NCBI GenBank assembly: GCA_000023405.1 | Contig: CP001643.1 | Coordinates: 310,001-374,000, forward strand | Origin: Brachybacterium faecium DSM 4810 | GTDB taxonomy: Bacteria; Actinomycetota; Actinomycetes; Actinomycetales; Dermabacteraceae | Length of the DNA stretch: 64,000 bases | Direction: 5' to 3' | In this document: piece after piece, positions 56,291 through 59,899 of the stretch | How positions within the stretch are numbered: position 1 is the first letter of the stretch | Layout: each line of letters begins with the position of its first letter | Made by a program: the position numbers and the translations under genes | The notes under the pieces: model-generated | What the model was told of the DNA's origin: nothing | Databases searched by the model: none | The model's input: the letters and a program-made list of their open reading frames with translations, nothing else

Positions 56291-57861
56291 TCAGTACGTC
56301 CCGGCGCCGCTGAAGTAGTCATCGAACTCCTCCGGGGTGAGCACGAGCGGCGGCTTGTCGGGGCCGTGCGGGTTGGAGAACTCATAGTAGGTGGTGCCGT
56401 CCGCCGTATAGGAGTCGGTGAGGACGAAGACGTGGTTGGTGACGTAGGCGGGGTCGCCCTTCGCCGTATCGGTCGCACTGTCCGAGTTCGGTGTCAGCAC
56501 CGCCACCGGCGCGCCGTCGCGGTCGTACGTCGCCGCGAGGTCCTGCACGTCCACGGAATCGACGGAGCCTTCGGGCGTCAGATACGGGGCGGCCTGGTCC
56601 CAGCCCCCGACGATGGCCTCGTACTGGCCGGGGTCGTAGGCGCTGTCGTCCTGGAAGCTGGCCGCCATGGCCTTCTCCACGTATGCGACCCACAGCGCCG
56701 AGGAGTCGCCGTCGCCGAAGTCGGCACCACCGGGGCCCGCGTAGGCGCCCTGGTAGCTGCCATCCGACCGCATCGGGAGATCGTCGGTGACCGTCACATC
56801 CCGCGGGTTGCCCGCGTGGTCGTAGAGGGTCACGGTGACGGTCCCGTCCCCGTTGTCGACCACGTGCTCGGCGGGCCAGGAGGGGTCCTCGTGCACGACG
56901 GCCAGCAGATTCGCGAGCATCCAGCAGTCCCCGTAGCCCTGCTGGTTCACGTCCATCCACGGCGCGTACTCGACGTCCTCCGCGCCCGGGTTGTCCGCGC
57001 GCTCACGTCGGTACTGGTCGAGGATCTGCTGCTGGACCTCCTCGGACGGCAGGATCGGGGCGTCGCCGGGATCCCCGTACTCGGGGGTGCCCTCGGGAAC
57101 CGTCCCGCGGTCCTCGTCGTCCACGTAGGTGGTCGTGTCGGGCTGGGACTCCGGGAACGCGGCATGGATCTTGTCCCGGAGCCTGGGATCTGCGTCGCGC
57201 AGGGCGTCCGACCAGGTCTCGATGTACGTCCAGTCGTCGCTGCCGCCGAACAGCCGCCATGCCCTGCCATGTGCGCGCAGCGCGTCGGCGAAGGCGGTGA
57301 GATCGGCGGTCGAGGAGCGGTTCAGGAAGTCGCTGAGCTGCTCGGGCGGAGCTCGCGCAGACGTCCGGCGAGCTCGTCGGCCGCCTCGCCCTGGCTCATC
57401 GCGAACGGGTTCCAGCGGAAACTGTCGTCCCCGGCCTGGTCCAGCAGGTCGGAGAGCTCCTCGTACTCCTCGTCGGTGAGCACCTCTGCGATGTCGTCAT
57501 GATGCTCGACAGGGGGTTCCTGCTCAGTGTCATGGGGTGGGACCGGGGAGCGGCCGTCCCCGCCCTGGGCCTCGCCCTCGGCGGCGCTTCCCTCGGCACC
57601 GTCGGCAGCGCTGGCGGCGTCCTGCTCCTCGGCGTGGTGGGAGGCCTGTGCGCCTCGGTCCTCCAGATCTGCGCAGGCGGCGTCGATGTCGCCCGCCAAC
57701 GCTCTCCACCGCTGCCGGAAGTCCTCGGCATCGGGGCCCGTCCAGCCGGCCGAGCCCACGGCGGCGTCGATCCGGCCCCGAGCCTCACGGAGCGTGCGTG
57801 CGCTCCGTCCGCTGTGCACGCCGAAGGCGTCCAGCGCGCGAGTGTCTGCTCCACAGAACAT
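56291..57861 (-). pseudogene. WXG100-calpain (C2) protease gene with a single frameshift
   Basis: From ATG 57861 (AGGGGG upstream) the frame encodes a helical domain with the WXG100 hairpin: TLREARGRIDAAV, SAGWTGPDAEDFRQRW. An acidic linker and DEEYEELSDLLDQ follow, with the frame closing at 57322. The natural continuation is in the next frame: PPEQLSDFLNRSS, GGSDDWTYIETW, then a calpain-like cysteine protease with QQGYGDCWMLANLLAV (oxyanion Gln, catalytic Cys), TNHVFVLTDS (His) and EFSNPHG (Asn). One missing base near 57349-57355 explains the shift, and no start codon lies in the second frame between it and GTG 57124. Protein would be about 523 residues. It could be a sequencing error, a true mutation, or recoding. 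The architecture suggests a type VII-secreted effector or envelope protease. Confidence 0.8.
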
Positions 57862-57905
57862 GATCCCCCTCGTTCCCGGGATCGAGTGTCCCGCTCCGAG
57901 CCGCA

Positions 57906-57937
57906 CCCGTCCATGGGGAGGACTGCCCATGGACGGG
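57906..57937 (-). terminator. Perfect 12-bp hairpin after the purine permease gene
   Basis: CCCGTCCATGGG (57906-57917) is perfectly inverted at 57926-57937 with an eight-base loop. It lies 18 bases beyond the permease stop and before the WXG100-calpain start. Confidence 0.7.
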
Positions 57938-57955: not shown

Positions 57956-59899
57956 CTACTGGAGCGACTCGAACTTCCGCACCCACGCGGAGCCGACGGG
58001 GTTCGCGTCGGCCACCATGATGCTGAAGCGATCCCCGGCGATCTCGGCGACCTCGGTCAGCGCCACGCGCCGCTCGTGCTCGCGGGAATGGTCCAGGCGG
58101 CGCACCCCGTCGGCGATGATCGCGGTGAAGGTGTCGGTGCGGCCCAGGAAGGCCACGAACGGCATGTCGAACCGCGAGGCGTAGCGGGCGGAGAGGTCGC
58201 GCACCGCCTCGACGTCCTCCTCGCTGAGGTTGTCCAGGGCGAAGGAGCCCACATCCTGGCTGATCGAACCGGCCTGCTCCTCGTCGGCCGTGACCAGGGT
58301 GGCCATGTCCGGGTAGGCGCGCACCAGATCGTCCTGCTCGGCGCGCTCAGCGGTGAGCACCGCATCCTCGATCGCGGCCCGCAGCGCGGGGGCGTCCTCG
58401 AAGGGCTGGGACTCCCAGGCCCGCTCGAGCGGCCAGGTCGCCCCGTTGAACAGCGACTCGAAGGTGCCCACGAAGGTCTCGCGGTCCATCTCGTTGACCG
58501 CGGAGATGTCGATCCGCTCGCCCTCGGCGGTGGTGGCCACGTTCGCGCCCCGCTGGCGGCCGATGTGGAAGAACAGCAGGTTCAGCACGATCGCGGTCAT
58601 CGCCCCCACGGTCACGCCGGAGGAGACGAACACCTGCGCCCACGAGGGGAACACCTCCGCGATGTCCGGCTTGAAGCTCACCAGCATCGCCAGGCCCAGC
58701 GAGGTGCCGACGATGACGGAGTTGCGGTTGTCGGTGAGATCCACCTTCGACAGGGTCTGGATGCCCACCAGCGCGACCGAGGCGAACAGCGCGAGGGAGG
58801 CGCCACCGAGCACGGGGGAGGGGATCGCGGCGACCACCGCACCGGCCTTCGGCAGCACGCCGAGCACGATCATCAGCACGCCCGCCCCGGCGACCACCCA
58901 GCGGGACTTCACGCGGGTCAGGCGCACCAACCCGATGTTCTGGGCGAAGCAGGTGTAGGGGAAGGAGTTCAGCACGCCGCCCAGCAGGGTCGACAGGCCG
59001 TCCGCGCGGATCGCCTCGGAGATGTTCTTCGGCCGGATCCGCTTGCCGACGATCTCACCGGCGGCGAAGACGTCACCGGTGGTCTCCACCATCGTGATCA
59101 GCATGACGATGATCATCGAGACGATCGCGGTGAGGGAGAAGGTGGGGATCCCGAAGTAGAACGGGGTGGTGACGCCGAAGGCGGAGGCCTCGGTGACGCC
59201 GCTGAAGGAGGTGTCCCCGAGCAGCACCGCCACGATCGTGCCGATCACCAGGCCCAGCAGCACCGCGATCGTGCCCAGGAAGCCGCGGAAGAACCGCTGC
59301 ACCAGCACGATGATCCCCAGGGTGCCCAGCGCGTAGAGGATGTCGCGGGTGGCGGGGGTGCCCTCGGCGTAGTTGGTGATGTCCCCGGCGGAGACGCCCA
59401 GCAGGGTGATGCCCATCGTGGTCAGCACCGTGCCGATCACCACCGGCGGGAAGAACCGCAGGATCCGCGCGAAGTACGGGGCCACCAGGAAGGTGAACAG
59501 GCCCGCGACGATGATCGAGCCGTAGATCATCGGCAGGCCCTCGGCGCCGCCCTCGCCGCCGGTCGCGGCCAGGCCGATCGCGATGATCGGGCTCACCGCG
59601 GTGGTGGTCACGCCCTGGATGATCGGCAGGCGCACCCCCACCTTCCAGAAGCCGACCGACTGGATCAGCGTCGCGATGCCGCAGGTGAACAGGTCCGCGT
59701 TGATGAGGTGGATCGTCTGCTCGGGGGTCAGGTTCAGGCCGGAGGCGATCAGCAGCGGCACGATCACCGCGCCGGCGTAGAACGCCAGCACGTGCTGGAT
59801 CGAGAGCACCGTGAGCCGTGCCGGGGGCGGCACCTGGTCGACGGGATGCCGGCGCGGGGCGGCGTCGGGCACAGGGGCGGGGGCTGCGGCGGTGGTCAT
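57956..59899 (-). CDS. NCS2 purine (xanthine/urate) permease fused to an OHCU-decarboxylase-like domain
   Basis: Residues 1 to about 465 are an NCS2/NAT transporter: SIQHVLAFYAGAVIVPLLIA, and the NAT signature QNIGLVRLTR, whose first Gln is typical of xanthine/urate rather than uracil transporters. From about residue 470 a soluble domain resembles 2-oxo-4-hydroxy-4-carboxy-5-ureidoimidazoline (OHCU) decarboxylase of urate breakdown (VNEMDRETFVGTF, MPFVAFLGRTDTFTAIIADG, LTEVAEIAGDRF). The catalytic His of the family's HP motif is Tyr here (AYPDM, about residue 531) and the S-x2-E-Q motif reads SISQD, so decarboxylation is doubtful. It may sense a urate product and gate uptake (inference). Total 647 residues; no other purine-degradation gene is in the window. 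Confidence 0.88.
   Translation of the reverse strand: MTTAAAPAPVPDAAPRRHPVDQVPPPARLTVLSIQHVLAFYAGAVIVPLLIASGLNLTPEQTIHLINADLFTCGIATLIQSVGFWKVGVRLPIIQGVTTTAVSPIIAIGLAATGGEGGAEGLPMIYGSIIVAGLFTFLVAPYFARILRFFPPVVIGTVLTTMGITLLGVSAGDITNYAEGTPATRDILYALGTLGIIVLVQRFFRGFLGTIAVLLGLVIGTIVAVLLGDTSFSGVTEASAFGVTTPFYFGIPTFSLTAIVSMIIVMLITMVETTGDVFAAGEIVGKRIRPKNISEAIRADGLSTLLGGVLNSFPYTCFAQNIGLVRLTRVKSRWVVAGAGVLMIVLGVLPKAGAVVAAIPSPVLGGASLALFASVALVGIQTLSKVDLTDNRNSVIVGTSLGLAMLVSFKPDIAEVFPSWAQVFVSSGVTVGAMTAIVLNLLFFHIGRQRGANVATTAEGERIDISAVNEMDRETFVGTFESLFNGATWPLERAWESQPFEDAPALRAAIEDAVLTAERAEQDDLVRAYPDMATLVTADEEQAGSISQDVGSFALDNLSEEDVEAVRDLSARYASRFDMPFVAFLGRTDTFTAIIADGVRRLDHSREHERRVALTEVAEIAGDRFSIMVADANPVGSAWVRKFESLQ

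What the first reader, a model, noticed from the sequence alone, without database searches (positions are those of the whole stretch)
57956..59899. Purine permease fused to an OHCU-decarboxylase-like domain that has lost its catalytic His and Glu
The transporter carries a xanthine/urate-type NAT signature, and the attached domain belongs to a urate-degradation enzyme family. In that family a His in an HP motif and a Glu in S-x2-E-Q are catalytic; here they are Tyr (AYPDM) and Gln (SISQD). A permease with a dead product-binding domain suggests allosteric control of uptake by a urate breakdown intermediate, an idea I have not seen described.
Basis: partly seen in the sequence, partly recalled or inferred. 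Interest (0 to 1): 0.68.

Follow-up and report, generated by a model that had tools for sequence, protein, structure and literature searches.

The report
Purine permease with dead enzyme tail
Many actinobacteria make a purine importer that ends in an enzyme-like domain whose catalytic histidine is replaced by an aromatic residue, and it is kept even in genomes where no urate oxidase was found, so it more likely senses or steadies something for the transporter than breaks urate down.

Summary
The ORF is real and exactly placed (57956-59899, minus strand, 647 aa): an NCS2/SLC23 xanthine-type permease followed by an OHCU decarboxylase (UraD) fold. Catalytic His67 (zebrafish numbering) is Tyr529, as claimed. 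The claimed Glu-to-Gln is probably a register slip: the gap-free alignment puts Asp549 at Glu87. In 98 distinct fused domains from eight actinobacterial family codes the His column is Tyr (69) or Phe (29), never His; standalone UraDs have His in 132 of 138. Glu87 is Asp in 85 of 98; Arg161 is kept in 96. In Rhodococcus-like, f17 and Rubrobacter-like genomes the fusion usually lies just upstream of a separate UraD gene (51 of 58), often with uricase. Elsewhere it is an orphan: 16 of 21 Brachybacterium carriers and 26 of 26 further carriers have no uricase, yet the domain is under purifying selection. Sensing of OHCU or allantoin is thus unlikely as the general rule. Best reading (about 45%): a pseudoenzyme domain retuned to a purine-type ligand that regulates the permease; a structural role is the main rival. 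I found no description in print (searches listed).

The parts
57956..59899 (-). fused gene: NCS2/SLC23 permease + C-terminal UraD-like pseudoenzyme domain, 647 aa
58571..59806 (-). permease part, residues 32-443 (TIGR03173 xanthine permease, over cut-off)
58913..58942 (-). NAT-type signature QNIGLVRLTR, residues 320-329 (motif definition recalled)
   Evidence: in 11 aligned Brachybacterium copies nine of the ten residues are invariant and T328 nearly so
58505..58570 (-). linker, residues 444-465, fastest-evolving part
58025..58495 (-). UraD-like domain, residues 469-625 (PF09349)
58313..58315 (-). Tyr529 at the position of catalytic His67 of zebrafish OHCU decarboxylase
58253..58255 (-).
58028..58030 (-). 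Arg624 at the position of Arg161, kept in 96 of 98 fused domains
57959..58024 (-). C-terminal tail after the Pfam domain, with the VADANP motif (residues 629-634) common in the fused class

Best explanation
This is a purine-base importer of the NCS2/SLC23 (NAT) family with a C-terminal, probably cytosolic, pseudoenzyme domain descended from OHCU decarboxylase. SHOWN by sequence: the fusion is widespread in Actinomycetota; in the copies examined the catalytic His is Tyr or Phe, Glu is usually Asp, and Ser and Gln are mostly lost, while the Arg that in UraD contacts the substrate (role recalled) and other core residues are kept; the domain is under purifying selection also in species where no uricase was found. 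INFERRED: the former active site still binds a small molecule, with an aromatic ring in place of the catalytic His suited to stacking on a planar purine (xanthine, urate, guanine or similar), and binding changes the transport rate, so that import is matched to the purine level inside the cell. Where the gene heads the urate operon the ligand could be urate or one of its breakdown products; in orphan lineages such as most Brachybacterium it must be something else, most simply the transported base. It would work like the cytosolic STAS domain of SLC26 transporters, which share the membrane architecture.
For: Fused class: Tyr 69, Phe 29, His 0 of 98; standalone class: His 132 of 138. Two named records opened later agree: Phe in the Rhodococcus qingshengii fusion, Tyr in the Rubrobacter radiotolerans one. 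Glu87 column Asp 85, Glu 7 of 98; Arg161 column Arg 96 of 98. In 49 fused domains thinned to 80% identity the Tyr/Phe column (entropy rank 0.17 of 181 columns), Pro68 (0.12), the Asp column (0.21), Arg161 (0.06), Tyr111, Phe115, Arg138 and Glu146 are among the more conserved, so the site was replaced in a fixed way rather than left to drift. In Brachybacterium every permease found of this orthologous group (21 genomes, at least 92% identity) is joined to the domain (two copies have a split frame). Median dN/dS of the domain is 0.33 in 36 pairs of uricase-lacking species (permease 0.12). In operon lineages 51 of 58 fused genes have a separate UraD domain gene within 1.5 kb downstream on the same strand, so the decarboxylase step is already covered. 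Precedent: SLC26, of the same 7+7 membrane architecture, has a regulatory C-terminal domain (passages of PMC6497670).
Against: No ligand, binding or transport was measured. The domain has about three times the non-synonymous change of the permease (mean pN 0.108 against 0.034), and Ser84, Gln88 and Asn108 are free to vary, so the pocket is only partly conserved. In 7 of 98 fused domains Glu is kept, and the Rubrobacter radiotolerans copy keeps Ser, Glu and Gln and has lost only the His. Conserved core residues could be structural. The full-length AlphaFold model failed (mean pLDDT 36.9), so how the domain packs on the permease is unknown. That the domain is cytosolic rests on the recalled topology of NAT proteins.
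Confidence: 0.45

Rival explanations
1. Structural role: the UraD fold, dimeric in crystals, clamps or stabilises the permease dimer or helps its folding and membrane insertion, without a ligand.
For: [quoted passage not shown] Core residues (Pro37, Tyr111, Phe115, Arg138, Glu146) are kept while several active-site residues vary. The domain was not missing from any Brachybacterium orthologue found.
Against: It does not by itself explain why the His column is limited to Tyr/Phe and the Glu column to Asp/Glu in nearly all of 98 sequences, or why Arg161 is kept.
Confidence: 0.27
2. Scaffold: the domain tethers the true UraD or other urate enzymes to the importer, so that urate passes to them on entry.
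For: Separate UraD domain just downstream in 51 of 58 operon-lineage fusions; order fusion-uraD-uraH-pucL in Rhodococcus qingshengii; in f69 the partner UraD belongs to the same clade as the fused domains.
Against: In orphan lineages no uricase was found (26 of 26, and 16 of 21 Brachybacterium), and 15 of the 21 Brachybacterium carriers have no standalone UraD, yet the domain is kept. In f22 and f17 the partner belongs to another UraD clade (TIGR03180 for f17).
Confidence: 0.13
3. Altered enzyme: with Tyr/Phe and Asp the domain still catalyses OHCU decarboxylation weakly or a different reaction.
For: Glu87 is replaced conservatively by Asp (85 of 98) or kept (7 of 98), and Arg161 is kept; the Rubrobacter radiotolerans copy has lost only the His; some fused domains pass NCBI's equivalog cut-off for UraD (domain of L076 115.6, L258 128 against 96.25).
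Against: His 0 of 98; Ser84 and Gln88 mostly lost; a separate UraD usually sits next door in operon lineages; no uricase in orphan lineages.
Confidence: 0.1
4. Relic: an inactive leftover tolerated by the permease.
For: Higher dN/dS than the permease; split frames in two Brachybacterium copies.
Against: dN/dS below 1 (median 0.33, range 0.18-0.56), retention in all 21 orthologues found in the genus and in eight family codes of the phylum.
Confidence: 0.05

Closest known systems
NCS2/SLC23 (NAT) xanthine-urate permeases (PbuX, PucJ/PucK, UapA, UraA)
   Same: permease half passes TIGR03173 and TIGR00801 cut-offs
   Different: carries a C-terminal folded domain; [quoted passage not shown]
OHCU decarboxylase UraD (zebrafish 2o70, Klebsiella 3o7h, Agrobacterium Atu2327 2o8i)
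   Same: fold, and 23-24% identity to 2o70 in the structural match; Arg161 and core residues kept
   Different: His67 is Tyr/Phe, Glu87 mostly Asp, Ser84 and Gln88 mostly lost
SLC26/SulP transporters with C-terminal STAS domain
   Same: same 7+7 membrane architecture plus a C-terminal soluble domain (passages of PMC6497670): the closest parallel in how it may work
   Different: STAS is another domain; the permease here is SLC23
Bifunctional urate-pathway fusions (plant TTL / (S)-allantoin synthase; UraD-uricase proteins such as PucL)
   Same: also contain a UraD domain fused to another function of the urate pathway (passages of PMC2834698; a UraD-like match inside a gene annotated pucL)
   Different: there the UraD domain is joined to an enzyme, and in TTL it is active; here a dead domain is joined to a transporter

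Membership tests
NCS2/SLC23 xanthine permease | profile score over curated cut-off | tested here: met
   TIGR03173 491.7 bits (cut-off 414.15), TIGR00801 356.6 (291.8)
NCS2/SLC23 xanthine permease | transport of xanthine/urate | not testable with these tools
   sequence only
OHCU decarboxylase (UraD) | UraD fold and Pfam PF09349 | tested here: met
   110.4 bits, cut-off 24; 2o70 TM 0.76/0.85
OHCU decarboxylase (UraD) | NCBI equivalog cut-off (TIGR03164, 96.25 bits) | tested here: not met
   80.7 bits whole protein, 84.8 bits domain alone
OHCU decarboxylase (UraD) | catalytic His (67 in zebrafish) | tested here: not met
   Tyr529; Tyr/Phe in 98 of 98 fused domains
OHCU decarboxylase (UraD) | catalytic Glu (87 in zebrafish) | tested here: not met
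   Asp549 in the gap-free alignment (Gln548 in a gapped one); Asp in 85 of 98 fused, Glu in 135 of 138 standalone
OHCU decarboxylase (UraD) | Arg161 at the substrate site (role recalled) | tested here: met
   Arg624; 96 of 98
OHCU decarboxylase (UraD) | genomic company of uricase and HIU hydrolase | tested here: inconclusive
   present elsewhere in this genome, absent in 16 of 21 (uricase) and 17 of 21 (HIU hydrolase) Brachybacterium carriers
OHCU decarboxylase (UraD) | decarboxylase activity | not testable with these tools
   sequence only
SLC26/SulP | C-terminal STAS domain | tested here: not met
   the domain is PF09349, no STAS match in Pfam

The most novel reading that the evidence does not exclude
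An actinobacterial class of SLC23 transporters has recruited a dead OHCU decarboxylase as a built-in purine sensor: the active-site His became an aromatic stacking residue and the pocket now reads the level of the imported purine inside the cell (in operon lineages perhaps urate or its products) and gates import. It would be a ligand-sensing C-terminal domain in a transporter family said not to have C-terminal domains, and one that lives on in lineages without a urate pathway.
Probability: 0.38. Interest if true: 0.75.

Novelty: new variant of a known kind. Interest (0 to 1): 0.6.

Why it matters
It gives SLC23/NAT transporters a natural case of a folded C-terminal domain, like the STAS domain of SLC26, and a clean pseudoenzyme story: no His in any fused copy examined, while the separate UraD next door keeps it. 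It also warns annotators: some fused domains pass the UraD equivalog cut-off, and one such permease is named uraD in a public record. The two states, in the urate operon and orphan, make the function of the domain directly testable.

Tried and rejected
Considered and rejected: (1) artefact or read-through fusion: the fused arrangement recurs in 21 Brachybacterium genomes and in family codes f1, f3, f6, f13, f17, f22, f69, f71. (2) Recent duplication of the neighbouring uraD: rejected for f1, f17 and f22, since the fused domains fall in a different clade from the standalone UraDs there (100* branch), nearer to f69 standalones. The tree needs 2 changes of fused/standalone state, so one origin is possible, but it nests f69 standalones inside the fused class, warns of long branches, and is rooted at the midpoint only. 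(3) The catalytic His-Pro moved elsewhere: an HP dipeptide occurs in 7 of 98 fused rows, at other positions (four at the conserved Pro-Phe after helix 3, two in the permease end, one in a loop). (4) Riboswitch control: no Rfam family reached its threshold in the window.

Led nowhere: full-length structure (mean pLDDT 36.9; not used further); literature on the catalytic residues and mutants, so the roles of His67, Glu87 and Arg161 are recalled; opening the Corynebacterium glutamicum PF09349 match of the control set, so that it is a fused permease is only a guess.

Rows dropped or limited: six standalone rows had no His: three are a Tyr variant (L106, L107, L119), two look like fragments of split fused genes (L232, L244), one is a wrong-frame artefact (L180). 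All 98 fused rows were kept; some are cut by contig ends or frame splits, and a few come from closely related strains; the two named plasmid copies (L257, L258) were fetched later and are not among the 98. The tree used 77 fused rows (thinned at 90% identity) and 78 standalone rows (thinned at 72%). One search also lists 11 loci from genome contigs (Dermabacteraceae, none with a partner), mostly the same Brachybacterium genomes as in f1; I left them out of the count. One search held 80 carriers: six of them (G893, G946, G968, G860, G1083, G1093) I judged to be fused by the length of the open frame alone, and for f22 I sent 37 (5 of g226 and 32 others), not every known carrier. In one search the uricase state of the named loci was carried over from the G genomes by equal contig length.

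Full report
OBSERVATION. The gene at 57956-59899 (-) is a single open frame of 647 codons. Residues 29-412 match Pfam PF00860 and residues 469-625 match PF09349. NCBIfam calls the first part a xanthine permease over its cut-off (TIGR03173, 491.7 against 414.15 bits); the second part scores 80.7 bits against TIGR03164 (UraD), under its 96.25 cut-off. phmmer finds zebrafish OHCU decarboxylase 2o70 first (E 1.2e-8), and the best AlphaFold model of the domain (12 sequences, pLDDT 80.0; the five models range from 50.0 to 80.0) matches 2o70 in Foldseek (E 3e-8, TM 0.76/0.85), followed by other solved UraD structures. The genus is taken to be Brachybacterium: all 11 named relatives found by the domain search are Brachybacterium, at 79-91% domain identity, and several have the contig lengths of genomes placed in the window's own genus.

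CATALYTIC RESIDUES. Against 2o70 the gap-free alignment pairs His67 with Tyr529, Ser84 with Ile546, Glu87 with Asp549, Gln88 with Val550 and Arg161 with Arg624. That His67, Glu87 and Arg161 are catalytic or binding residues is recalled; two library searches found no paper on them that I could use.

SURVEY. Open frames of at least 90 aa in 256 loci were scored with profiles of fused and standalone domains. 98 distinct fused domains: Tyr 69, Phe 29, His 0. 138 distinct standalone rows: His 132, Tyr 3, Leu 1, gap 2. Glu87 column: Asp 85, Glu 7, Val 2, Thr 1, Ala 1, Ile 1, gap 1 in the fused set; Glu in 135 of 138 standalone. Arg161: Arg 96, Lys 1, gap 1 fused; Arg in 135 of 138 standalone. By family code, Phe occurs only in f22; Glu is kept in f13 (3 of 3), f69 (3 of 5) and f17 (1 of 9). 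Among 49 fused domains thinned at 80% identity, Arg161, Arg138, Glu146, Phe115 and Tyr111 are near-invariant, the Tyr/Phe, Pro68 and Asp columns are in about the most conserved fifth, and Ser84, Gln88 and Asn108 vary. So the site was changed in a fixed way, and only in part let go. Two named copies fetched later agree on the His and show the range: Rhodococcus qingshengii has Phe and Asp; Rubrobacter radiotolerans has Tyr but keeps Ser, Glu and Gln, so the His loss may have come first.

FREQUENCY. Genus: 21 of 38 genomes have the fused permease, and no unfused copy of that orthologous group (at least 92% identity) was found; genomes without it have at most 45% identical permeases. In two of the 21 (G003, G027) the permease frame is split. 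Class sample: strong matches to the fused profile (E below 1e-50, in frames of 640 aa or more) in 10 of 394 genomes. Family f22: 54 of 251. Order: the fusion was also found in f3, f6, f13 and f17 genomes. Phylum sample: in f69 and f71 too. Named records: a Rhodococcus qingshengii plasmid and a Rubrobacter radiotolerans plasmid carry it; they are the two that I opened of 91 plasmid records with a domain match, of which 40 were listed. Their domains are closest to f22 (67% identity) and to f71 and f69 (51-54%) respectively, which is why I call those codes Rhodococcus-like and Rubrobacter-like. No search here covered whole genomes outside Actinomycetota with the fused profile.

NEIGHBOURHOOD. Rhodococcus qingshengii: fusion, uraD, uraH, pucL in a row on one strand. 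f17 (L076): uricase, unfused permease, fusion, UraD, HIU hydrolase, then genes with the Pfam domains of hydroxypyruvate isomerase, tartronate semialdehyde reductase, glyoxylate carboligase and glycerate kinase (the names of the last four are my reading of domains and order). A separate UraD domain within 1.5 kb downstream on the same strand: f22 without g226 37 of 42, f17 8 of 9, f69 4 of 5, f71 2 of 2, together 51 of 58; f13 0 of 4; f1, f3, f6 and g226 together 0 of 43, plus one f1 locus too short to tell. In the window's genome a UraD with His and Glu, HIU hydrolase, uricase and a 42% identical unfused permease lie together at 941-944.6 kb of the contig, far from the fusion.

ORPHAN LINEAGES. 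Uricase PF01014 is found in 8 of 38 Brachybacterium genomes, 5 of the 21 with the fusion; HIU hydrolase in 7 of 38 and 4 of those 21; a standalone UraD in 6 of the 21. Two of the 16 carriers without uricase (G027, G029) are less than 90% complete. In 26 further carriers (f3 16, g226 5, other f1 4, f6 1) no uricase was found; in the operon lineages and f13 it is in 9 of 9 (f17), 4 of 4 (f13), 7 of 7 (f69), 2 of 2 (f71) and 19 of 32 (f22 without g226) (six of these 80 carriers were judged fused by frame length only). The controls of the uricase search rang in 2 of 14 well-known genomes, Bacillus subtilis and Haloferax volcanii. The f1, f6 and g226 domains and 8 of 13 f3 rows form one group in the tree (29 rows, 98*); the other five f3 rows lie apart. 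According to PMC4562309 (passages), urate oxidase is almost invariably accompanied by both UraH and UraD, so the lack of all three in most Brachybacterium carriers argues against a hidden urate pathway; other urate oxidases were not searched for here.

SELECTION. Between 11 Brachybacterium copies (55 pairs) the median dN/dS is 0.12 for the permease and 0.36 for the domain; restricted to the 9 uricase-lacking species (36 pairs), 0.12 and 0.33 (range 0.18-0.56); linker 0.54. The domain is constrained, but less than the permease.

MECHANISM. I favour a ligand-sensing domain (0.45): an aromatic residue in place of His in every copy examined, the usual Asp for Glu and the kept Arg look like a site put to another use. 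A purely structural role (0.27) is the main rival, then a scaffold for urate enzymes (0.13), an altered enzyme (0.10) and a relic (0.05). For the operon lineages it remains open.

NOVELTY. Searches of the paper library for UraD or OHCU decarboxylase with permease, transporter, domain and fusion terms showed no title or abstract that describes this architecture; of the papers listed I looked only at passages of seven. PMC4562309 and PMC4016543 (passages) do not mention such a fusion in the places shown; the latter lists a xanthine permease gene next to an OHCU decarboxylase gene in Rubrobacter xylanophilus. A review on transporter tails (PMC6597760, passages and term counts) has no occurrence of 'decarboxylase' or 'fused'. 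[quoted passage not shown] Subscription journals are mostly missing from the library, and domain databases may list the architecture, so 'not described' is limited to these searches. I class it as a new variant of a known kind: a known transporter family and a known fold in a new combination with the enzyme's His gone.

Noticed in passing
L106:1471-2037, L107:1474-2037, L119:1342-1923 (family f22): A standalone UraD-like protein with Tyr at the catalytic His but Ser, Glu and Gln kept (AYPDVGRRPGSEKSAAEQ); L107 scores 209 bits in NCBI's UraD subfamily PRK13798 (cut-off 124). A second, separate His-to-Tyr change in the family.
   Followed up: partly
L258:6609-8606 (Rubrobacter radiotolerans plasmid, WP_084264147.1) and L076:8936-9487: Fused domains can pass TIGR03164's equivalog cut-off (128 and 115.6 against 96.25); the Rubrobacter permease fusion, 665 aa with Tyr at the catalytic His, is named uraD in the public record.
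   Followed up: yes
control genome Corynebacterium glutamicum: In the control sets it has a PF09349 match but rings neither for uricase nor for HIU hydrolase: it may be an orphan carrier in a tractable organism, but the match could not be opened.
   Followed up: no
L121, L123, L125 and other f22 genomes: 13 of 32 f22 carriers have no PF01014 uricase, although L121, L123 and L125 have the fusion-UraD-HIU hydrolase set: a different urate oxidase may be present.
   Followed up: no
L086 (G002:C1:2671000-2690000): A Brachybacterium genome with a standalone UraD with His and Glu but no uricase or HIU hydrolase detected.
   Followed up: no
L008/L067 (G027) and L029 (G003): The permease part of the fused gene is split between two frames; assembly error or decay could not be told apart.
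   Followed up: no
window 56291-57124 (-) and 57322-57930 (-): A calpain-type cysteine peptidase domain (PF00648, 25.3 bits, just over its 23.8 cut-off) next to a small protein without Pfam match; possibly a secreted pair.
   Followed up: no
L241, L183, L258: In some Rubrobacter-like fusions about 20 extra residues lie in the domain between the Tyr and the Glu/Asp of the former active site.
   Followed up: partly
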